Under the pieces are notes generated by a model, which was not told the DNA's origin, did no database searches, and saw only the letters and a program-made list of their open reading frames with translations. The position numbers and the translations under genes are program-made. A stretch of DNA of 46,251 bases from Thermoanaerobaculia bacterium (GTDB lineage: Bacteria; Acidobacteriota; Thermoanaerobaculia; Gp7-AA8): NCBI GenBank assembly GCA_017883205.1, contig JADGNZ010000048.1, positions 1-46,251 on the forward strand, written 5' to 3'. Below are positions 3,168-46,251 of this stretch, piece after piece. Position 1 is the first letter of the stretch. Each line of letters opens with the position of its first letter.

Positions 3168-3659
3168 GTGGAGTCTCAGGAGAAATTCATCGTCCTTCTT
3201 CGTCACGGAATCGCCGAGCCGCACGGCGCGCGCGAGGACGATGACGCACGCATTCTCACGAAAAGCGGCAACCGGCGGATGAAGCAGAGCGGCCGCGGGC
3301 TCGCAAAATACTTTCCGAAGGCCGAGGCGATCTATTCGAGTCCGCTGATCCGCTGCATCGAGACGGCGGAGTGGGTGGAGAAAGCGTACGGATCCGCCGT
3401 GCACATGAAGACCTCCGATGCACTGAAGCCCGGCGCCGATGTCAAAGCGTTCCGCGCGTTGCTCAAGAAGATCAGGGCACATCACATCATCTTCGTCGGC
3501 CACGAACCGAATCTGAGCACGACGATGCTGGCAATGACCGGGCTTCACTCTGACGGCACGATCGAGCTGAAAAAGGGCGGCTGCTACGGTTTGCGCCTGG
3601 CCGGCGGGAGCGCGTATCTGGAGTGGATGCTGCCACCGCGCGCGCTGCGGCAGAAGTGA
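3168..3659 (+). CDS. sixA: SixA-type phosphohistidine phosphatase (histidine phosphatase superfamily)
   Basis: The 163-residue protein belongs to the branch-2-free, short histidine phosphatases: LLRHGIAEP carries the catalytic RHG near the N-terminus, an arginine follows in SSPLIRCIETAEW, and GHEPNLS supplies the second catalytic histidine. SixA removes phosphate from phosphohistidine proteins in E. coli; in polyphosphate clusters similar proteins often sit beside ppk, where the substrate is not settled. I chose the GTG at 3168, which has GAGGAGG 6-8 bases upstream; a GTG at 3153 overlaps the ppx stop (ATGTGA) and remains possible. The gene follows ppx without a gap and is likely co-transcribed with it. 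Confidence 0.88.
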   Translation: MESQEKFIVLLRHGIAEPHGAREDDDARILTKSGNRRMKQSGRGLAKYFPKAEAIYSSPLIRCIETAEWVEKAYGSAVHMKTSDALKPGADVKAFRALLKKIRAHHIIFVGHEPNLSTTMLAMTGLHSDGTIELKKGGCYGLRLAGGSAYLEWMLPPRALRQK

Positions 3660-6464: not shown

Positions 6465-6524
6465 GGAGCGGGAATGGTATGGCACGAAATCAGGGGAGAG
6501 CGTGTAAATTTTGGTGGGGGGGGG

Positions 6525-6690
6525 TGGGGTGTGGGGAGTGGGGGGTGGGAGAATCAGAGATCAGAGATCAGAGATCAGAGATCAGAGATCAGATCTCTGG
6601 CGAACCTCTGATCTCTTGTCTCTGATTCTTTCTGATCTCTGATTCTCCCACTCCCCACCCCCTACGCCCCACTCCCCTCTACTTGGCATC
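6525..6690. repeat. Inverted repeat with internal ATCAGAG tandem repeats
   Basis: The 267 bases between ppk1 and tonB are mostly repeat. A G-rich left arm (GTGGGGAGTGGGGGGTGGGAG) is followed by six tandem copies of the 7-mer ATCAGAG (about 6552-6594), and then by the C-rich complementary arm with CTCTGATCTC words and CACTCCCCACCCCC. The whole can fold into a long hairpin. Because ppk1 and tonB are divergent, the element sits between their promoters; the remaining 40 bases before tonB show no convincing -35/-10 pair. Its G/C-rich arms match those at 20825-20934, which suggests they belong to one family. Confidence 0.85.
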
Positions 6691-17327: not shown

Positions 17328-17425
17328 TGGCGGAGGCGGGTCGGAATCGAACCGACCCTTCGACGCTTCCGCGCCGAAACAACGGTTTTGAAGACCGCGG
17401 GAGCCACCAGACCCCATTCGCCTCC
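17328..17425 (-). tRNA. selC: Selenocysteine tRNA, anticodon UCA
   Basis: Read on the minus strand, a 98-base gene folds as tRNA-Sec. The acceptor GGAGGCG (17425-17419) pairs with CGCCTCC near the 3' end, followed by G and an encoded CCA ending at 17328. The anticodon arm is GCGGTC-TTCAAAA-CCG, with TCA in the loop. There is a long variable arm (TTTCGGCGCGGAAGCGTCGAAG) and a T arm GTCGG-TTCGATT-CCGAC. The large D stem with GGTCTGGTGGCTCCC also fits the bacterial Sec type, and the length (about 95-100) is characteristic. It lies alone between the surface-protein gene and a hypothetical gene. No selA, selB or selD is in the window, and I found no in-frame TGA selenoprotein here. Confidence 0.93.
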
Positions 17426-18959: not shown

Positions 18960-19858
18960 CATCTCTCCTGTTCAGTGATGGCGATTGCCGCAAAGAGTCC
19001 CGCCTCACTCCAGTCGCGGAACCAGCCGAAGAGCTCCTGCTGCCTCGGCATGCGCCGAAAGCGGCGCGCAAACTTCGTGATGGCACTGCCGATGGTCTCT
19101 CCGGAAATGAGAGAGCCGAGGAACGTGAAGGCTTCCTGCGAAAGCGGCATGCGGTAGACGCCGTAGTCGCGCCGGTGAACGGCAAGCCAGGTCTTCCCGC
19201 GGCGCGGCTCGACCACGCGCTCCTCACGCCACGCCTGGAAGACTTCATCCGCGTTGCACGCAAAGGTCAGAAGACGGATTGCCGGGATGGGCGTGAAGCG
19301 CAGCGCTTCGATCCGATCCGGCGGCACGGACGCGATCGCGTCCGGCGGCATCGGAGCGGCCTCCGCCTCTTCGAATACATGCGTCATCGCCAGCTCGAGG
19401 CGGGCCAGATCGGCAAGGAACGTTTTTCTCTTCAAGTCCGAGGCGGCGATGAACTCCGGCAGATGGTCGCCGAGCCGGTTCAGCGTGTAGCTTCGCGACG
19501 GAAAGCGCTGCACGTACTCGCGCACCAGGTGACCGAACGCGTGCTCGCCCATGGCGTAGGCAAGCGCTTCGTAGTCGGCCTCCAGCGCCTCGATCATCCG
19601 CAGCATGTACATGGAGTGGTAGATCCCGACCCGCTGAATCGGCTGCAACGTCTTCGACGGGAGCACCACCGTATCGACGCCGATCGCCCCCGCCTCGGCT
19701 GCCTCGTACACATCCCCAGGATGCGTCACGACCGACTGCATCCACTCCTGCAACGGAGCAAGGGCGAGGGGGTCGGGGGTCGGGGGTCGGGGGTCGGAGA
19801 TCAAAGTCGTTGCTACGACTCCCGACTCCCGACTCACCTCTCGGTACGCGTCAGACAT
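18959..19858 (-). CDS. bufC: DUF2063 family protein, partner of the MNIO enzyme
   Basis: The 299-residue protein belongs to the DUF2063 (HvfC/BufC) family that pairs with DUF692 enzymes to recognise RiPP precursors. The normal domain begins near LAPLQEWMQSVVTHP and includes YHSMYMLRMIEALEADYEAL, then a C-terminal region with FLGSLISGETIGSAITKFAR. The start ATG at 19858 overlaps the bufB stop (ATGTCTGA). The first ~30 codons are odd: SRESGVVATTLISDPRPPTP is the translation of a GTCGGGGGTCGG-type hairpin repeat, so an intergenic element has become coding sequence while the overlap with bufB was kept. Confidence 0.88.
   Translation of the reverse strand: MSDAYREVSRESGVVATTLISDPRPPTPDPLALAPLQEWMQSVVTHPGDVYEAAEAGAIGVDTVVLPSKTLQPIQRVGIYHSMYMLRMIEALEADYEALAYAMGEHAFGHLVREYVQRFPSRSYTLNRLGDHLPEFIAASDLKRKTFLADLARLELAMTHVFEEAEAAPMPPDAIASVPPDRIEALRFTPIPAIRLLTFACNADEVFQAWREERVVEPRRGKTWLAVHRRDYGVYRMPLSQEAFTFLGSLISGETIGSAITKFARRFRRMPRQQELFGWFRDWSEAGLFAAIAITEQER
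19768..19846. repeat. Hairpin repeat of family C inside the bufC N-terminal coding end
   Basis: The left arm has GGGGGTCGGGGGTCGGGGG words (19768-19799) and the right arm has ACGACTCCCGACTCCCGACTC (19815-19836); they can pair. It lies within the bufC frame (codons about 5-30 on the minus strand). Confidence 0.85.
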
Positions 19859-20813
19859 GCACGGCCTCTGCGTCTTGCGGGGGTCGCGTGTCGGGTGTCG
19901 GGTGTCGGAGAGATTTGGAGCTGCTTTTTCTACGACCCCCCACCCCCGACTCCCCACTCCCTTTTCTTCTACGACCCCCCACCCCCGACTCCCCACTCCC
20001 TCGAAACGCTTCCGCCTTCCGCGCCTCGGCATGCACGGTCTCGAAGTCGGGGATATTCGCATCCCACTCCATCAGCGTCGAGACGTCGCCGGTGCGGGCG
20101 CAGGCGCGCCCGTAGAGCTGCCACACCTCGTCGATGACGACGTTGTCGTGCGTATCGATGATGTGCGTGCCGTGGTTCGCGTGTCCTGCCAGGTGGACCT
20201 GCACGACGCGATCGGCAGGAATGGCGTCGACGTACGTCTTCGGATCGAAGCCGTGGTTGAACGAGCTGACGTAGATGTTGTTCACGTCGAGCAGCAATCC
20301 GCAGTCGCTCTCGGCGGCCAGCGCTGCCAGGAAATCCCACTCCGTCATCGTCGACGTTGCGAACTCGACATACGACGACGGATTCTCGACGACAAGCGGC
20401 GTCTCCAGAAAATCGGAGATGACGCGCACGCGCGCGGCGGTGTGGCGGAGCGACTCCTCGTTGTACGGCATCGGGAGAAGATCGTGGACGTTGCGTCCGC
20501 TCACGCCCGTCCAGCAAAGGTGGTCGGAGATCCAGCGGGCATTGACGCCGCGCGCCAGCTCCTTCAGTTTGCGGAGGTAATCGAAGTCGATCGGATCGGT
20601 GCCGCCGATCGACATCGAGACGCCGTGAAGAACGATCGGGTATCGCTCGGCGATCGTTTCGAGCACGTAGCGAGGACGGCCGCCGGTGTCGAGATAGTTC
20701 TCGGAGAGTGCCTCGAACCAGTCAACATCGGGCTGCGTATCGAGGATGTGCGCGTAATGCACGGTCCGCAATCCGATGCCGATACCGAGGTCAGGGAAGT
20801 TGAATCGATTCAT
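19851..20813 (-). CDS. bufB: MNIO-family (DUF692) RiPP-modifying enzyme, bufferin type
   Basis: DUF692 proteins are multinuclear non-heme iron oxidases that modify cysteines of RiPP precursors (oxazolone/thioamide or thiooxazole). The 320-residue protein starts at ATG 20813 (MNRFNFPDLGIGIGLRT) and shows the metal-binding barrel motifs in order: LHGVSMSIG, ISDHLCW, HDLLPMPYN, VENPSSYV, LLDVNNIYVSSFNHG, VQVHLAGH, IDTHD and LMEWDANIPDF. The natural domain ends near EARKAEAF; about 48 further residues (GSGESGVGGRR twice, then RHPTPDTRPPQ) are translated hairpin repeat. The stop overlaps bufC. It lies between the Cys-rich precursor gene and bufC, which defines a bufferin-like operon. Confidence 0.92.
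   Translation of the reverse strand: MNRFNFPDLGIGIGLRTVHYAHILDTQPDVDWFEALSENYLDTGGRPRYVLETIAERYPIVLHGVSMSIGGTDPIDFDYLRKLKELARGVNARWISDHLCWTGVSGRNVHDLLPMPYNEESLRHTAARVRVISDFLETPLVVENPSSYVEFATSTMTEWDFLAALAAESDCGLLLDVNNIYVSSFNHGFDPKTYVDAIPADRVVQVHLAGHANHGTHIIDTHDNVVIDEVWQLYGRACARTGDVSTLMEWDANIPDFETVHAEARKAEAFRGSGESGVGGRRRKGSGESGVGGRRKSSSKSLRHPTPDTRPPQDAEAVHV
19878..20003. repeat. Direct and inverted repeats inside the bufB C-terminal coding end
   Basis: A G-rich segment (GGGGGTCGCGTGTCGGGTGTC, from 19879) faces two direct copies of a 35-39-base C-rich unit with TTCTACGACCCCCCAC (starting about 19928 and 19967). The unit is in frame with bufB and adds the duplicated GESGVGGRR-type peptide. The G- and C-rich parts can pair. 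Confidence 0.85.
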
Positions 20814-35087: not shown

Positions 35088-35259
35088 CACGGGTGCGAGA
35101 AGTGATTTCTCGCAGGAGCATCGGACGGTCGGGCCGCCGTCCGAAACCAGGCGCGCGACAGGGCGCGAAAAGCCTCCGTGGGTTTGAGCCGGGTGCATTC
35201 TCCCGGGCTCACTGCTGACGTTCGCTTCCGGGAGCCCTTCGTCGCGCAGAGGTGCGGCG
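35088..35259 (+). promoter_or_regulatory. Potential structured 5' leader of the CPA2 antiporter gene
   Basis: The 170 bases before the TTG start are rich in hairpins: CGAGAAGTGATTTCTCG (35097-35113), TCGGACGGTCGGGCCGCCGTCCGA (starting about 35121), GGCGCGCGACAGGGCGCG (about 35151-35170) and GAGCCGGGTGCATTCTCCCGGGCTC (about 35187-35211). Several conserved-looking short loops (GAAAC, GAAAAG) lie between. Antiporter genes in some phyla carry Na+ (DUF1646 motif) or Li+ (nhaA-I, nhaA-II) riboswitches; c-di-AMP (ydaO) elements precede K+ genes elsewhere. I cannot match a consensus by eye, so this is a candidate only. Confidence 0.4.
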
Positions 35260-36513
35260 TTGACGATCACGGAACTACTCGTTGCTCTGCTGGCGATCTT
35301 TGCCGCGGCGAAGCTGTTCGGCGAGCTTGCAAGGCGGATCGGCCAACCGGCCGTCCTTGGCGAAATGGTGGGCGGCATCGTCATTGGTGTCTCCGGCCTC
35401 CATCTCATCGATGCGCACAGCTCGCTCATCCACGTCCTCTCGGAGCTTGGCGTCCTGCTCCTGCTTTTTCTGATCGGTCTCGATACCGACATTCACAGGC
35501 TGCTCGCCGTCGGACGTGCCTCCGCCGCGGTCGCTGTTGCAGGCGTTCTCCTGCCCTTCGCGACCGGCTACGGCGTTGGGGCGTTGTTCGCGCTTCCGAC
35601 GACGATCTCGGTCTTTCTCGGCGCTTCGCTGACCGCGACGTCGGTGGCGATCACGGCGCGCGTGCTGTCGGACCTCGGCCAACTGAAGAGCGACGAATCG
35701 CAGGTGATCCTCGGCGCGGCAGTGATCGACGACATTCTCGGACTGGTCCTTCTTACGCTGGTAAGCGCGATGGCAGCGGGCCGGAAGATCACGATGATCG
35801 GCGCCGGAAGAACCTTCGGGATCGCCTTCGGCTTCGTCGCCGTCGCGATCGCGGCCGGGACGATTCTCGCGCCACGCCTCATCGCGCTCACGACTCGCCT
35901 TCGCATTACTCGAGCGCTCTTCTTCACATCGATCATGTTCGCATTCGCCCTGGCGTACCTCGCGGACCTTGCGGGCTCCGCGGTGATCATCGGCGCGTTC
36001 GCTGCGGGTCTCGCTCTGGCCAGGACGGACCGTGCCCGCGACATCGAGCGCGAGGTCTACCCCATCGCCCAGTTCTTCATCCCGATCTTCTTCGTATCGG
36101 TCGGTGCAGCCGTAGACCTGAAGCAGCTCAACCCTTTCAACCCGGCCAGCCGGCAATTCCTCGTCATCGGCCTGCTTCTTGCGCTCGCTGCAATCGCTGG
36201 AAAACTGGTGGCAGGCTTCACTGCATTTGCAGGACGCCCCCTTCGAAGGATCGTCATCGGAGTGGGCATGATCCCGCGCGGCGAGGTTGGTCTGATCTTC
36301 GCGCAGCTCGGCCTGACTGCGGGACTTCTTTCCGCGGGACTCTACAGCTCCGTCGCCCTCATGGTGATGGTAACAACGTTCGTCGCACCGCCGCTGCTTC
36401 GCGTAATGCTCACGCCGGAGACCCCCGACGAAGCGAGCACTCTAAGCGACGTCGTGACGGAGACAATGTCAGACGTCGCAGAAAAAGAGATCGCCGAGGA
36501 GCTACGGCAGTGA
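35260..36513 (+). CDS. CPA2-family cation/proton antiporter
   Basis: The 417-residue protein has about 12-13 membrane helices and the CPA2 features: FAAAKLFGELARRIGQPAVL, LLLFLIGLDTDIHRLLAVGR, SLTATSVAITARVLSDLGQL, VIDDILGLVLLTLVSAM with the paired aspartates of the transport site (the ND/DD-like motif), and FIPIFFVSVGAAVDL. It ends with a short acidic tail (EKEIAEELRQ) and lacks a C-terminal RCK/TrkA-N domain, so it is unlike KefB/KefC in regulation. It starts with TTG 35260, six bases after AGAGGT. Its place in the K+ island suggests K+/H+ or Na+/H+ exchange. Confidence 0.88.
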   Translation: MTITELLVALLAIFAAAKLFGELARRIGQPAVLGEMVGGIVIGVSGLHLIDAHSSLIHVLSELGVLLLLFLIGLDTDIHRLLAVGRASAAVAVAGVLLPFATGYGVGALFALPTTISVFLGASLTATSVAITARVLSDLGQLKSDESQVILGAAVIDDILGLVLLTLVSAMAAGRKITMIGAGRTFGIAFGFVAVAIAAGTILAPRLIALTTRLRITRALFFTSIMFAFALAYLADLAGSAVIIGAFAAGLALARTDRARDIEREVYPIAQFFIPIFFVSVGAAVDLKQLNPFNPASRQFLVIGLLLALAAIAGKLVAGFTAFAGRPLRRIVIGVGMIPRGEVGLIFAQLGLTAGLLSAGLYSSVALMVMVTTFVAPPLLRVMLTPETPDEASTLSDVVTETMSDVAEKEIAEELRQ

Positions 36514-36568
36514 CCGCACCGTGCACAGGGTTCCTCGGCGATCGCGGAGCCGGGAAGAGTCGATCAGG

Positions 36569-36580
36569 TATTCTGAAACC
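36569..36580 (+). promoter_or_regulatory. -10 element six bases before the KdpD-N start (leaderless-type promoter)
   Basis: TATTCT at 36569-36574 is a good extended -10, followed by GAAACC and the ATG at 36581. An identical stretch TCAGGTATTCTGA stands before the paralogue at 45313. A transcript starting 6-7 bases after the -10 would begin at or near the ATG, so the mRNA would lack a leader and Shine-Dalgarno. No clear ribosome site is present. Confidence 0.6.
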
Positions 36581-37711
36581 ATGCCGCGCATGAACGACGA
36601 AGCTCGTCCCGATCCTGACGAGCTGCTCCGCCTTACAAAAACCGACGACAAGGGGCGCGGCCGGCTGAAGGTCTACCTCGGCATGGCTGCCGGCGTCGGC
36701 AAGACGATGCGCATGCTCGACGATGCCCACCGCATGCGCCGCGCCGGCGTCGACATCGCCATCGGTCTCGTCGAAACGCATGGACGTGAGGAGACATCCG
36801 CGCGCATTGCCGATCTCGAGGTGATCCCGCGCCGCCGCGTTTCGTATCGCAACGTCATCATCGAGGAGATGGACCTCGCCGCCATCCTGGCGCGGCATCC
36901 GGACGTCGTCGTCGTCGACGAGCTCCCTCACACGAATGCGCCCGGTTCCAAAAACGAAAAGCGCTGGCAGGACGTGGAAGACATCCTCGCCGGTGGCATC
37001 TCGGTGATGACGGCGCTCAATGTCCAGCATCTCGAGGGAGTGCAGGACGTCGTCCGCTCCGCCACCGGGATCGATATCAGCGAGCGCGTTCCGGATCGCA
37101 CGGTGCGCGAAGCAGACTCCGTGATCCTGGTCGACCTTCCCGTGGCGGAGCTTCAGGAACGTCTGCGCCAGGGAAAGATCTATCCGCCCGATCAGGCCAC
37201 CCGCGCGCTCGATAACTTCTTCCGGACCGAGCTCCTGGTCCGGCTGCGCGAGCTGGCCCTGTTGCAGACCGCGACATTCTCCGGTGGGCCGGTGGTCGTG
37301 CAGGGTACGGCGGAGGTGCGCCTGGCGGTTGCGCTTCCCTTTGAGCCGGAAATCGCGCGATCGCTGGTCCTTCGTGCCTCCCGCCTGGCCGGCCGGATGA
37401 ACACGCGCTGGTACGCCGTCTACGTGCGCCAACGGCGCGCGCATGCGGAGAACATCAGCGCCGAGCAACACAGGAAACTTACCGAGAACGTACAGCTGGC
37501 CATTTCCCTCGGCGCCACCGTTGTCACACGCGAGTCCGAGGACGTCGCCGGCGCTCTCCTCGACTTCGCGAAGTCGGAAGGAATCACGATGTTCGTGGTT
37601 GGCCGCCCCACCCGCTCCGGCCTCGTCAGCCGCGTCGTACCGAGCACCGTGCACCGGTTGCTGGAGCAAGGGCGGGGGCGTGGCTTTGACATCGTGATTG
37701 TGGACGTGTAG
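36581..37711 (+). CDS. KdpD N-terminal sensor module (KdpD domain plus USP), copy 1
   Basis: The 376-residue protein equals the N-terminal cytoplasmic half of KdpD. The KdpD domain (residues about 28-240) has the P-loop-like GMAAGVGKT, then RAGVDIAIGLVETHGREETS, VVVDELPHTNAPGSKNEKRW and ALNVQHLEGVQDVV. The USP-like domain (about 260-376) has ALPFEPEIARSLVLRASRLA and FVVGRPTRSGLVSRVVPSTV. No histidine kinase part follows. The C-terminal kinase half is separate at 21735, 13 kb upstream. It may bind KdpD in trans and sense cytoplasmic K+, c-di-AMP or ATP; that is inference. A 90%-like paralogue starts at 45313. Confidence 0.92.
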   Translation: MPRMNDEARPDPDELLRLTKTDDKGRGRLKVYLGMAAGVGKTMRMLDDAHRMRRAGVDIAIGLVETHGREETSARIADLEVIPRRRVSYRNVIIEEMDLAAILARHPDVVVVDELPHTNAPGSKNEKRWQDVEDILAGGISVMTALNVQHLEGVQDVVRSATGIDISERVPDRTVREADSVILVDLPVAELQERLRQGKIYPPDQATRALDNFFRTELLVRLRELALLQTATFSGGPVVVQGTAEVRLAVALPFEPEIARSLVLRASRLAGRMNTRWYAVYVRQRRAHAENISAEQHRKLTENVQLAISLGATVVTRESEDVAGALLDFAKSEGITMFVVGRPTRSGLVSRVVPSTVHRLLEQGRGRGFDIVIVDV

Positions 37712-40496: not shown

Positions 40497-40964
40497 TCAG
40501 CGATCGCCAGCTCGAATGATCGCAAGAGCTTCAACCCCATCGTGCGCGGACAAGAGCGCTGCCACAACGCTCTCCTGACGCAGAACCCGAGCCGCTTCCG
40601 ACAGGAAGCGAAGATGGAGTGAGGACGCATCCAACGGAGACATAAACACGAGAATGATCTGCATCTCCGGACGTTCGCTGACGACCCCTTTTGCGTTGAT
40701 GCCGAGGCCGGCTACGACCTGCGTCACCTCGCGCGTGCGTCCATGCGGCAACGCCACCGGCGGAATGCAAGTAGCGCCATCCGCTTCGCGCTTCATCACG
40801 GTCTCGACCGCCGCAGCAACGGCTTCCGGCGTGAGTCCCGCGTTTGCCAACGGAGCGGCCAGCAGTTGGGAGACGGCGTCGCGCAGCGTTTCCGTGCGAA
40901 GGTTGACGAGGATGTCTCCGCTCTTCAGAATCTCGGACAGAGACGTCGATACCGCGCCGTTCAT
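40497..40964 (-). CDS. PTS IIA-like (fructose/nitrogen type) regulatory protein
   Basis: The 155-residue protein (ATG 40964, MNGAVSTSL) has the EIIA-fructose/Ntr fold: LSEILKSGDILVNLRTETLR, then ATCIPPVALPHGRTREVTQV, where the histidine in ALPHGR is the likely phosphorylation site, GLGINAKGVVSERPEMQIIL and VFMSPLDASSLHLRFLSEAA. A TACGAT -10-like word lies eight bases before the ATG. No PTS EI or HPr is near. EIIA-Ntr proteins can regulate K+ uptake (TrkA, KdpD) in enterobacteria, which fits the context, but the link here is inference. Confidence 0.88.
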   Translation of the reverse strand: MNGAVSTSLSEILKSGDILVNLRTETLRDAVSQLLAAPLANAGLTPEAVAAAVETVMKREADGATCIPPVALPHGRTREVTQVVAGLGINAKGVVSERPEMQIILVFMSPLDASSLHLRFLSEAARVLRQESVVAALLSAHDGVEALAIIRAGDR

Positions 40965-41007
40965 CGCTCCGGATCGTATCAGTAGGAGCAATCGGGAAAT
41001 GCTCGTT

Positions 41008-41450
41008 CTCTTACCAAGGCAAGGATGACCTCTCGCGTTTCTTCAGTCACTCTGCCGGGGGGTAAGCATCGATGATGTTTTTCTTCCTCGCGCATTCGCC
41101 ATGGTAGTGATCAATGGTCGCTTTCTTCCGGCCACTCCTCCGGCGCTCATCGTCGATGATTGCTTTTGCTACGTAGACTCTTGCCAAGGTACACATCGAT
41201 GCTCGCTTTCTTTCGTCTCACTCTTCCAGCGGTCATCGTCGATGATTGCTTTTCTAACGTAGACTCTTACCAAGGTGAGCCTCGACGCTAGGCTTTCTTC
41301 CGTCCACTCTTCCGGCGGTAGTCGTCGACGGTTGTTTTCCAACGTAGACACTTACCAAGGTAAGCATGAATGCTACTTCCAGATCCTCGCACTCTTACCA
41401 AGGTAAGCATCGATGCTGCAATCGCTTCATTGAACTCTTACCAAGGTAAT
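41008..41450. repeat. Array of double-palindrome repeats (CTTACCAAGGTAAG plus AGCATCGATGCT)
   Basis: Six copies of the 14-base palindrome-like CTTACCAAGGTAAG or close variants occur at 41010, 41080, 41266, 41351, 41394 and 41437. Most are followed, sharing AG, by a second perfect or near-perfect palindrome AGCATCGATGCT (perfect at 41406-41417; variants at 41065, 41091 and 41363). Around them lies a longer repeat of 85-86 bases (41173-41258 and 41259-41343) that includes GTAGACTCTT, CTTTCTTCCGTC, TCATCGTCGATGATTGCTTTT and CTAAC. Earlier units (41049-41172) are more degenerate. Spacing between core copies is irregular (about 43-86). There is no ORF. Confidence 0.85.
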
Positions 41451-41720
41451 CCTCTCTCCCTCGATTCGAACCATCGCTGACTCATCAGTCACCTCCGATG
41501 GTCGCTGAAGATCACTGAACTGCTACCTTGGTTTGAGCAATCCAGTCGAACTGCATCATCGGCTCTTTCCGAGGAAAGAGCGCATGGTTCAATATGCAGC
41601 AACGACGGTAACCTGGGCAATCGTGAGTGGATCATTTTCAACCAAGCGTGCTTCAGATCCGGGCATCGATGGTGATAAACCAAGCATCGGATCTGTCCAT
41701 GGTTTGAGCCGACGATGCGT
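41451..41720 (+). other. Non-coding region with further hairpins before the XRE gene
   Basis: No gene of length is convincing here. Features: arms ACCATCG (41470-41476) and CGATGGT (41496-41502), a perfect 9-base stem GCTCTTTCC/GGAAAGAGC (41562-41581), and a single CTACCTTGGT (41523-41532) in the opposite sense to the array. Copies of GGTTTGAGC occur near 41530 and 41701. It could be a transcribed structured RNA or a regulator-binding region. Confidence 0.4.
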
Positions 41721-41732
41721 TACAATGCATCG
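41721..41732 (+). promoter_or_regulatory. -10 element six bases before the XRE gene start (leaderless type)
   Basis: TACAAT (41721-41726) precedes GCATCG and the ATG at 41733, the same 6-base distance as at the two KdpD-N genes. No Shine-Dalgarno is present. Confidence 0.6.
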
Positions 41733-42020
41733 ATGCCACGCGCGATGCGAATCGACCCTGATGCAGCACGCTTCGGCGCGATCCTGAAGCGACTGCGCGA
41801 GACCAAAGGATGGACGCGGCAGAAACTTGCCCAGCGCGCCGGTATGACACCAACGTACATCGGTATTCTCGAGTACGGCGGCAATACTCCGAGTCTGCCG
41901 ACCGTCCTGGAACTGGTCGAAGTCCTCGGCGGCGACATCGCCGACATCATGCGCCGCCTCGCCGCCGCTCGCGTGACACCAGCCCCCGTGCTGCCGCCAC
42001 CGCCGGCCTCAAAAACGTAG
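41733..42020 (+). CDS. XRE-family helix-turn-helix regulator
   Basis: The 95-residue protein has a Cro/CI-type helix-turn-helix at residues about 10-65 (FGAILKRLRETKGWTRQKLA, QRAGMTPTYIGILEYGGNTP, SLPTVLELVEVLGGDIADIM) and a short Pro-rich tail (PAPVLPPPPASKT). It is probably the sole DNA-binding domain, acting as a dimer. The ATG at 41733 is favoured by TACAAT six bases upstream; starts at 41715 or 41745 are possible. It lies immediately downstream of the palindrome array, whose dyads are of a size XRE dimers bind, so the array may be its target; this is inference. Confidence 0.85.
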   Translation: MPRAMRIDPDAARFGAILKRLRETKGWTRQKLAQRAGMTPTYIGILEYGGNTPSLPTVLELVEVLGGDIADIMRRLAAARVTPAPVLPPPPASKT

Positions 42021-45312: not shown

Positions 45313-46251
45313 ATGGCCCGCGCGACCGAGGATGCCCGCCCTGATCCCGACGAGCTGCTGCGCCTCACGAAAACCGACGACAAGGGACGCGGCCGCCTAA
45401 AGGTCTACCTCGGCATGGCCGCGGGCGTCGGCAAGACGATGCGGATGCTCGACGATGCTCACCGCATGCGCCGCGCCGGCGTGGACATCGTCATCGGCCT
45501 CGTCGAAACGCATGGCCGCGAGGAAACCGCGGCACGCATCGCCGATCTGGAAGTGATCCCTCGGCAGAAGGTTTCCTACCGCGATGTCGTCATCGAAGAG
45601 ATGGATCTACGCGCGGTCATCGCACGGCATCCGGATGTCGCTGTCGTCGATGAGCTGCCGCACACGAATGCGCCGGGCTCGAAAAACGAGAAGCGCTGGC
45701 AGGATGTCGAAGACCTTCTCGCCGCCGGCATCTCGGTGATGACCGCGCTCAACGTGCAGCATCTCGAAGGCGTGCAGGACGTCGTCCACTCTGCCACCGG
45801 AATCGAGATTCGCGAGCGCGTGCCGGACCGAATCGTGCGCGAAGCCGACTCGGTCATCCTCGTCGACCTTCCCGTCGCGGAGCTTCAGGAGCGCCTGCGT
45901 CAGGGAAAGATCTATCCGCCGGAGCAGGCTACCCGCGCCCTCGACAACTTCTTTCGCACGGAGCTTCTCTTGCGGTTGCGTGAGCTCGCGCTGCTGCAGA
46001 CAGCGACGTTCTCCGGAGCGCCGGTCGTCGTGCAGGGAGCCGCGGAGGTGCGCCTGGCGGTCGCGCTTCCATTCGAGCCATTGATCGCAAAGTCGCTGGT
46101 CCTGCGCGCATCGCGTCTGGCCGGCCGCATGAACACGCGCTGGTACGCCGTCTACGTCCGGCAGCGCCGCGCCCACCCGGAGAACATCAGCGCCGAGCAG
46201 CACCGCAAACTCAGCGACAACGTCCAACTCGCCATCTCCCTCGGCGCCACC
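45313..46251 (+). CDS. KdpD N-terminal sensor module, copy 2 (runs off the window)
   Basis: The gene starts at ATG 45313 (MARATEDARPDPDEL) after TATTCT at 45301-45306, which is spaced exactly as in copy 1. The 313 visible residues match copy 1 (36581) at roughly nine of ten positions by eye, including GMAAGVGKT, ELPHTNAPGSKNEKRW and ALNVQHLEGVQDVV. Differences are conservative (for example QK for RR in VIPRQKVSY). The end of the USP domain and whatever follows are outside the window, so it could be another short copy or a full-length KdpD. The gene is divergent from the ABC permease. Confidence 0.88.
   Translation, partial: MARATEDARPDPDELLRLTKTDDKGRGRLKVYLGMAAGVGKTMRMLDDAHRMRRAGVDIVIGLVETHGREETAARIADLEVIPRQKVSYRDVVIEEMDLRAVIARHPDVAVVDELPHTNAPGSKNEKRWQDVEDLLAAGISVMTALNVQHLEGVQDVVHSATGIEIRERVPDRIVREADSVILVDLPVAELQERLRQGKIYPPEQATRALDNFFRTELLLRLRELALLQTATFSGAPVVVQGAAEVRLAVALPFEPLIAKSLVLRASRLAGRMNTRWYAVYVRQRRAHPENISAEQHRKLSDNVQLAISLGAT

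What the first reader, a model, noticed from the sequence alone, without database searches (positions are those of the whole stretch)
41008..41450. Array of double palindromes between a PTS IIA gene and an XRE regulator
Six copies of CTTACCAAGGTAAG-type dyads, most fused to a second palindrome AGCATCGATGCT, sit in a 740-base gap without a gene. A longer 85-86-base unit is repeated in tandem. CRISPR, tRNA and simple hairpin families do not explain it: the two palindromes are adjacent, and core spacings vary from 43 to 86 bases. It could be a multi-site operator for the XRE protein, an origin-like or partition-like cluster, or a structured RNA. I know of no described element with this double palindrome.
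Basis: partly seen in the sequence, partly recalled or inferred. Interest (0 to 1): 0.75.

Follow-up and report, generated by a model that had tools for sequence, protein, structure and literature searches.

The report
Phased operator array before XRE gene
A small DNA-binding repressor gene is preceded by a long row of copies of what is probably its own binding site, spaced like teeth on a comb at whole multiples of two DNA turns, an exaggerated self-control switch that our literature searches did not turn up.

Summary
The array is real and more regular than reported. Nine exact CCWWGG cores lie between PTS IIA and XRE (41014-41702); gaps of 85,85,86,85,43,43,85,171 fit a 42.5-bp lattice that ends at the XRE promoter. 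Of 16 XRE genes of this subfamily, in 5 of 18 genomes of one bacterial family, 12 have 4-11 CCWWGG in 700 bp upstream, one has seven just downstream, two have a two-site form and one has only two distant cores. In all, 95 cores lie in 600 bp upstream against 7.6 in shuffles; 73 of 79 gaps are near multiples of 21.2 bp, two DNA turns. In L039, L043 and L045 spacers are near chance identity while cores and phase persist. Eighteen more distant XREs lack it. A second XRE clade carries another dyad on the same lattice. Best reading: an autoregulatory multi-site operator bound by neighbouring XRE dimers, duplicated together with the gene. Binding and repression are inferred, not shown. The second palindrome is confined to this array and its C103 copy. 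Fifteen arrays away from any subfamily XRE, and many other 21-bp arrays, remain unexplained.

The parts
41014..41702 (.). operator array: nine exact CCWWGG cores on a 42.5-bp (2 x 21.2) lattice
   Evidence: tandem-repeat periods 86 and 43
41014..41019 (.). core 1 CCAAGG (in CTTACCAAGGCAAG)
41099..41104 (.). core 2 CCATGG
41184..41189 (.). core 3 CCAAGG
41270..41275 (.). core 4 CCAAGG
41355..41360 (.). core 5 CCAAGG (perfect CTTACCAAGGTAAG)
41398..41403 (.). core 6 CCAAGG (perfect CTTACCAAGGTAAG)
41441..41446 (.). core 7 CCAAGG
41526..41531 (.). core 8 CCTTGG
41569..41574 (.). near-cognate CCGAGG within CTCTTTCCGAGGAAAGAG, on lattice, kept in the C103 copy
41612..41617 (.). near-cognate CCTGGG, on lattice, kept in the C103 copy
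41697..41702 (.). core 9 CCATGG, promoter-proximal, about where a -35 element would be
41721..41726 (+). predicted -10 element TACAAT, 12 to 7 bases before the ATG (leaderless transcript inferred)
41406..41417 (.). second palindrome AGCATCGATGCT, 11 bp (one turn) from core 6; shared only with the C103 copy
41733..42020 (+). XRE (HTH_3/HTH_31) regulator, 95 aa, probable array-binding protein
   Evidence: Pfam; frame; dN 0.011 and dS 0.249 against the C103 copy

Best explanation
The array is an expanded autoregulatory operator of the adjacent XRE gene. XRE dimers bind CCWWGG-centred dyads (here TTACCWWGGTAA). The proximal site lies on the XRE promoter, so binding represses a probably leaderless transcript. 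The upstream sites repeat at multiples of 21.2 bp (two helical turns), so dimers line up on one face of the DNA and can touch neighbours, directly or through a weaker-bound dimer in the empty slot. The result would be a cooperative, sharply thresholded and titrating feedback loop. Array plus XRE gene is duplicated as one module. Shown by sequence: array, lattice, co-occurrence, overlap with a predicted promoter, duplication, and absence of array and XRE at this site in two congeners. Inferred: binding, repression, cooperativity, titration.
For: Of 16 subfamily XRE genes (117 bits or more, next best 88.6), 12 have 4-11 CCWWGG in 700 bp upstream, L021 has seven just 3' of the gene, L041 and L049 have two, L047 only two distant ones. 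95 cores in 600 bp against 7.6 +/- 2.7 in shuffles; 73 of 79 gaps at 22, 42-44, 63-64, 83-87, 106, 130, 170-171 (Rayleigh R 0.88 at 21.1-21.2 bp; in the five loci without detectable tandem repeat R is 0.87 at 21.2 and highest, 0.90, at 20.3). Spacer identity 0.25-0.28 in L039, L043 and L045, 0.25 expected. Eighteen more distant XREs have nine CCWWGG in up to 700 bp each. TANNNT box at -16 to -12 in 11 of 16 loci, in 0-6% of background windows. Exact TTACCWWGGTAA exists only in the two arrays. A viral-contig XRE, 38% identical, has CCATGG at -48/-20, the geometry of L041 and L049. A second XRE clade has another dyad on the same lattice. Sequence and fold are nearest to C.AhdI and C.BclI, R-M controller proteins.
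Against: No binding or expression data. L021 has its array behind the gene and L047 has hardly one. Fifteen similar arrays lie away from any XRE of the subfamily, and three of those fit no XRE site matrix well. The same genome holds many 21-bp arrays without CCWWGG, most with no XRE adjacent, and 6 of the 18 distant XRE loci have 21-bp arrays of other sequence somewhere within about 1.5 kb, so a 21-bp repeat alone is not specific. Of 31 viral-contig stretches with the two-site pattern only one contig has the XRE, the one already known. Pairs of CCATGG at 15-37 bp also exceed the control in some family genomes without the subfamily (e.g. G006 12 against 0, G010 10 against 2); those of G006 that were listed are not phased, those of G010 were not listed.
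Confidence: 0.8

Rival explanations
1. Neutral tandem repeat: replication slippage in a genome prone to 21-bp minisatellites made the array, and the XRE gene is a bystander.
For: Three contigs of this genome (420 kb) have 14 regions of 21/42/63-type repeats, 11 of them with no XRE profile hit within 1.5 kb; units at 41110-41374 are plainly duplicated.
Against: Cores and phase persist in loci whose spacers are unalike; the proximal site has a narrow range of positions near a -10 box in nine loci; distant relatives carry just two sites, so sites probably precede expansion; distant XREs have few CCWWGG. Slippage probably supplied the copies.
Confidence: 0.1
2. Filament or centromere-like site: XRE coats the lattice to organise or partition DNA, with orphan arrays as further chromosomal sites, as Omega/parS heptads do on plasmid pSM19035.
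For: Fixed 21-bp phase; 15 arrays away from a subfamily XRE in three genomes, 10 of 15 fitting best the site matrix of an XRE in the same genome; promoter-overlapping parS arrays exist (PMC9499535, passages read).
Against: No ParA or partner gene among the eight neighbours scanned; several arrays and XREs per chromosome; present in only 5 of 18 family genomes. Orphan arrays may simply share descent with XRE-linked ones.
Confidence: 0.06
3. Structured RNA or hairpin array transcribed from the gap.
For: Folding z-scores of -2.7 and -4.2 for the two strands of the window gap, 20 shuffles each; 7 of 11 array stretches have z below -2 on at least one strand, down to -7.3 in L022.
Against: In most of these both strands gain, as palindromic DNA gives; no gain in L023, L024 and L048; mirrored spacer positions pair at 0.325 against 0.285 +/- 0.015 in cross-array controls, the excess lying next to the core; no Rfam match here.
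Confidence: 0.03

Closest known systems
Restriction-modification controller (C) proteins, e.g. C.AhdI, C.BclI, C.Csp231I
   Same: Small HTH proteins, nearest solved sequences and among the nearest folds; most such systems have two binding sites before the C gene; C.Csp231I needs the spacer length, not its sequence (PMC4321490, abstract and passages read)
   Different: No restriction or methylase gene among the window neighbours scanned; up to 11 sites instead of two; different core; site phase 21.2 bp
Rco repressor of plasmid pLS20 (Xre family)
   Same: Xre repressor binding cooperatively to several motifs in two operators, disturbed by a 5-bp insertion (PMC4207663, passages read)
   Different: Conjugation switch with two operators and a loop; not an evenly phased row of dyads
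Omega (ParB of pSM19035) and its heptad arrays
   Same: Promoter-overlapping arrays of 7-10 consecutive short sites (PMC9499535, passages read)
   Different: Ribbon-helix-helix protein, 7-bp non-palindromic sites, works with ParA
Xre-RES of Pseudomonas putida
   Same: Two Xre dimers modelled about 20 bp apart on a promoter (PMC12204516, passages read)
   Different: Toxin-antitoxin complex, one or two sites
Lambda-type operators (recalled, no call)
   Same: Cooperative Cro/CI-fold dimers on neighbouring dyads of autoregulated promoters
   Different: Three sites per operator, prophage switch

Membership tests
XRE/Cro-C1 HTH regulators (HTH_3, HTH_31) | HTH_3/HTH_31 domain above Pfam cutoff | tested here: met
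   HTH_31 47.4 bits (cutoff 27), HTH_3 44.6 (cutoff 23)
Autoregulatory multi-site operator | Sites overlap the regulator's own promoter | tested here: met
   Core 41697-41702 ends 18 bp before the predicted -10 TACAAT; proximal core at -18 to -36 in 9 of 16 loci. The promoter itself is a prediction
Autoregulatory multi-site operator | Regulator binds the sites and represses | not testable with these tools
   needs gel shift and reporter
R-M controller protein | Linked endonuclease or methyltransferase gene | tested here: not met
   Window neighbours scanned are ArsR-type HTH, SdpI, PTS IIA, ABC ATPase, permease, DUF2254, KdpD sensor
R-M controller protein | C-protein-like sequence and fold | tested here: met
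   C.AhdI E 9e-13 by profile, C.BclI first by fold
HipB/Y4mF antitoxin | Score above curated cutoff | tested here: not met
   39.4 bits against 71.65 for the window protein
ParABS-type centromere | ParA-type ATPase next to the binding protein | tested here: not met
   None among the eight neighbouring proteins scanned
Known structured RNA, including tRNA | Rfam match at 40992-41730 | tested here: not met
   The only matches at gathering score are tRNA-Sec and nhaA-I elsewhere in the window
CRISPR array | Identical repeats with unique spacers and cas genes | not tested
   No dedicated CRISPR search was run; by sight the repeats are degenerate and palindromic

The most novel reading that the evidence does not exclude
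A family-specific class of self-dispersing regulator-array modules: several XRE clades have each grown a lattice of their own dyad at exactly two DNA turns, dimers polymerise along it as a DNA-coating filament, and the many orphan 21-bp arrays in the chromosome are further docking tracks for these proteins, giving a sequence-addressed chromosome-organising or silencing system rather than ordinary promoter control.
Probability: 0.13. Interest if true: 0.88.

Novelty: new variant of a known kind. Interest (0 to 1): 0.64.

Why it matters
Operators usually hold a few sites (recalled). Here one repressor subfamily has arrays of up to 11 sites on a strict two-turn lattice, in some loci kept while the DNA between them diverged, and a second clade did the same with another dyad. 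That gives many natural replicates for asking how repressor dimers assemble along DNA, how operator number sets a feedback threshold, and how protein and site specificity change together. It also offers a testable origin for otherwise unexplained 21-bp repeat arrays in bacterial genomes.

Tried and rejected
Rejected: the double palindrome as the unit (second dyad in C88 and C103 only, apart from one two-mismatch match in L045). Rejected as a general rule: covarying hairpins in the spacers; mirrored positions pair at 0.325 against a mean of 0.285 (sd 0.015, maximum 0.325 of 500 draws) in cross-array controls, the excess lying next to the core. Not favoured: structured RNA.

Led nowhere: genome-contig scan with the XRE protein gave only three weak Bifidobacterium segments. 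Plasmid (97 records) and phage (10 records) protein searches with the viral-contig XRE L127 gave only relatives under 60% identity; their upstream DNA was not examined. Three-site lattice search of viral contigs gave 30 stretches, none with an XRE profile hit within 1.5 kb, 26 of 30 inside a frame of 100 codons or more, that is, mostly coding repeats. The two-site pattern gave 31 stretches; the only XRE was on the contig already known. Subfamily searches of 396 phylum and 148 class genomes found members only in the same family; in these the tool scored only the best 13 or 36 candidates per genome, whereas in the family all were scored. Single-site trans targets of the window XRE: of nine places with up to one mismatch to TTACCWWGGTAA, eight are in arrays.

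Literature: searches showed no description of such an array. Three of these returned nothing; one search returned 980 papers of which 12 were listed. Only open-licence PMC papers are held. Papers seen as passages: PMC4207663, PMC4321490, PMC9499535, PMC12204516, PMC10688885 (XRE paralogues of Caulobacter, no array in the passages shown). Others as listings only.

Slips corrected: my note said all 16 loci carry the lattice upstream; the checked count is 12, plus one downstream array, two two-site loci and one weak locus (L047).

Full report
WHAT IS THERE. Between a PTS IIA gene (40497-40991, minus) and a small XRE gene (41733-42020, plus) lie nine exact CCWWGG cores at 41014, 41099, 41184, 41270, 41355, 41398, 41441, 41526 and 41697. 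The gaps are 85, 85, 86, 85, 43, 43, 85 and 171; two near-cognate cores (CCGAGG 41569, CCTGGG 41612) sit on the same grid in the last gap. All lie on even steps of a 21.27-bp lattice counted back from 41697, drifting by about 0.12 step over 683 bp. Other one-mismatch hexamers in the gap lie off the grid. In the best copies the core is inside CTTACCAAGGTAAG. The second palindrome AGCATCGATGCT is perfect once, 11 bp from core 6, with five more at one or two mismatches.

THE SAME GENOME. The window is contig C88 of an unnamed 6.37-Mb genome, G000. TTACCWWGGTAA occurs exactly four times in it, three in this array and one in a second copy on contig C103; with one mismatch allowed there are nine places, eight in arrays on C88, C103 and C100. 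The C103 copy has nearly the same XRE gene (97% identical) between other genes (by sight). Strong DNA similarity starts inside the array and ends 7 bp after the XRE stop codon, so array and gene make the duplicated unit. Over 87 codons there are 15 synonymous and 2 nonsynonymous differences (dN 0.011, dS 0.249): the protein is under selection.

RELATIVES. A profile of 16 XREs (A1) finds the same 16 genes in 5 of 18 genomes of the family, with a clear score gap (117 bits or more against 88.6), and none of the subfamily elsewhere in 148 class genomes or 396 phylum genomes, where only the best 36 or 13 candidates per genome were scored. Counting CCWWGG in 700 bp upstream: L019 8, L020 4, L038 9, L039 8, L040 4, L022 9, L043 5, L044 10, L045 10, L048 11, L023 5, L024 8; L041, L049 and L047 have 2 each; L021 has 1 upstream but 7 in the 700 bp after its matched part. 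Eighteen more distant XREs have nine in all; six of those 18 loci do show 21-bp arrays of other sequence. In 600 bp upstream of the 16 genes there are 95 cores against 7.6 +/- 2.7 in 200 shuffles (maximum 16).

THE LATTICE. Of 79 gaps between neighbouring cores, 73 are 22, 42-44, 63-64, 83-87, 106, 130 or 170-171. The six others are 6, 27, 27, 28, 37 and 56; four of these come from an extra core splitting an on-lattice gap (6+37, 28+56) and the two 27s are the two-site loci. The Rayleigh R is 0.88 near 21.1-21.2 bp, reached by none of 2000 sets of uniform random gaps. In five loci, L039, L040, L043, L044 and L045, where the tandem-repeat finder (score 60 or more) sees no array, 30 gaps give R 0.87 at 21.2 and a maximum of 0.90 at 20.3. 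There, spacers 12-33 bases after the core agree at 0.25 (L039), 0.26 (L043), 0.28 (L045), 0.31 (L044) and 0.33 (L040), with 0.25-0.26 expected; so in L039, L043 and L045 little but sites and spacing has been kept. Gaps such as 22, 43, 64 and 85 are not multiples of three, unlike most of the coding repeats among the viral-contig matches.

THE PROMOTER. A TANNNT box begins 12-16 bases before the start codon in 11 of 16 genes, against 0-6% of background 12-base windows; start codons of four loci were shifted by three bases to the nearest ATG, and in L044 a box appears at -12 only if the start is moved upstream, by eye. That spacing means a leaderless or nearly leaderless transcript (inference). 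The proximal core lies at -18 to -25 in seven loci (L022, L038, L039, L041, L043, L045, L049) and at -36 in L019 and L020; it is at -55 or farther in the other seven. L041 and L049 show no such -10 box. A repressor at the near positions would block polymerase (inference).

TWO-SITE FORM. L041 (-45, -18) and L049 (-47, -20) have only a pair of CCATGG. A viral-contig XRE found with the profile, 38% identical (L127, read on through L144 at the other end of the contig), has CCATGG at -48 and -20; by eye the distal one overlaps the likely start of a divergent frame, which may explain it in part. It was found after the geometry was seen and is one independent case. It suggests an ancestral two-site operator later multiplied.

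SECOND CLADE. L030 (31% identical to the window XRE) has 10.6 copies of a 21-bp unit before its gene. Searching its protein in the family gave eight matches in four genomes. L030 itself (=L273) and the two nearest (66% and 63%: L274, L275) have 10, 7 and 8 copies in about 500 bp of a different dyad, roughly RYRC-n2-4-AGYRY, with gaps 21, 42, 62-65, 84, 86, 104 and 105; the five more distant ones have 0 or 1. The motif was defined on these three sequences, so the count is not independent of them. A plain lag-21 identity test is also positive in one locus without the motif (L278, p 0.002) and borderline in another (L276, p 0.05), perhaps because that DNA is coding.

EMPTY SITE AND ORPHANS. In the two congeners G001 and G002 the orthologous ABC genes (75-76% DNA identity) adjoin a PTS IIA gene directly, convergent, with no XRE profile hit and no array in the 1.5 kb on that side. 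In G000 the IIA gene points the other way, so a simple insertion is not the whole story. Fifteen arrays with CCATGG cores lie away from a subfamily XRE: six in G000, five in G002, four in G009. Some are weak: C66 has one 42-bp pair, and C41 and C100 have three and four exact cores beside CCACGG. No XRE profile hit was found in the fetched stretches around 14 of the 15; the array at G002:C22 has an XRE of another type about 0.56 kb away. For 10 of 15 the best-fitting site matrix belongs to an XRE of the same genome; C2 and C100 fit one of another genome slightly better, and three GC-rich arrays of G009 fit none well. Shared descent of arrays can explain this as well as binding.

BACKGROUND OF 21-BP ARRAYS. 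Strong tandem repeats with 21/42/63-type periods number 14 in 420 kb of G000, 4 in 400 kb of G009, 1 in 200 kb of G016 and 0 in 190 kb of G012. The G000 contigs were chosen partly because they hold XRE genes or matches, so the G000 rate may be high. Eleven of the 14 have no XRE profile hit within 1.5 kb. Sixteen consensus units, chosen from arrays seen in passing, show more dyad symmetry than shuffled units (Fisher combined p 1e-6), with five below p 0.05 and one at 0.05. What these arrays do is open.

PROTEIN. Profile search puts C.AhdI (9e-13) and C.BclI (4.7e-12) first among solved structures. The predicted fold (mean pLDDT 78.5) matches C.BclI, ClgR, C.AhdI and C.Esp1396I. It is not an R-M controller by context. 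Xre dimers about 20 bp apart have been modelled (PMC12204516, passages), and spacer length rather than sequence matters for C.Csp231I (PMC4321490, passages), which fits a lattice with free spacers.

MECHANISM. Most likely: XRE dimers fill CCWWGG sites on one face of the DNA, neighbours help each other, and the proximal one shuts the promoter. Many upstream sites would sharpen the response and hold protein in reserve. Shown: sites, phase, linkage, overlap with a predicted promoter, selection on the protein. Inferred: all binding and regulation.

ALTERNATIVES. Slippage surely helped to make copies, but does not explain phase kept without sequence similarity. RNA structure is not favoured: 7 of 11 arrays fold better than shuffles on at least one strand, most of them on both, and others do not. 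A filament or centromere-like role is possible and is stated as the novel case.

Noticed in passing
G000 contigs C31 and C65, e.g. C31:60007-60412, C31:94661-95004, C65:77417-77698, C65:120510-121132: Many tandem arrays of 21 or 42 bp, each with its own sequence, often with a dyad, most without an XRE gene next to them; rarer in samples of two family genomes that lack the XRE subfamily.
   Followed up: partly
L273, L274, L275 upstream of the XRE gene: A second XRE clade with a different dyad repeated on the same 21-bp lattice.
   Followed up: partly
L017:2534-2720 and 3483-3600; L089:4050-4170: REP-like palindromic repeats containing GGGGTCAGGTCT flank or adjoin orphan arrays and might have carried them.
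   Followed up: no
L090 (G000:C49:178316-178497) and L091 (G000:C91:115344-115371): CCATGG arrays with a 22-bp step and TCCCGCACCGTGTACC-like spacers, of another kind.
   Followed up: no
L150, L151, L153 (G009 contigs C3, C32, C41): GC-rich 43-bp CCATGG arrays with a TGCAGCGCG-type dyad between the cores that match no XRE site matrix well.
   Followed up: no
L146:1951-2220 (G002:C22): An XRE gene of another type (45% identical to L055) about 0.56 kb from a CCATGG array of the window type.
   Followed up: partly
window 35091-35142: nhaA-I riboswitch before a frame at 35260-36513 that reads like a cation:proton antiporter, by sight.
   Followed up: no
window 17332-17425: Selenocysteine tRNA gene on the minus strand.
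   Followed up: no
window 6519-6593 and 19768-20000: Clusters of 7-bp and 14-bp tandem repeats.
   Followed up: no
window 36521-37711 and 45313-46251: Two very similar KdpD-sensor-domain genes bracketing the region; the second runs off the window (the first has the KdpD Pfam domain).
   Followed up: no
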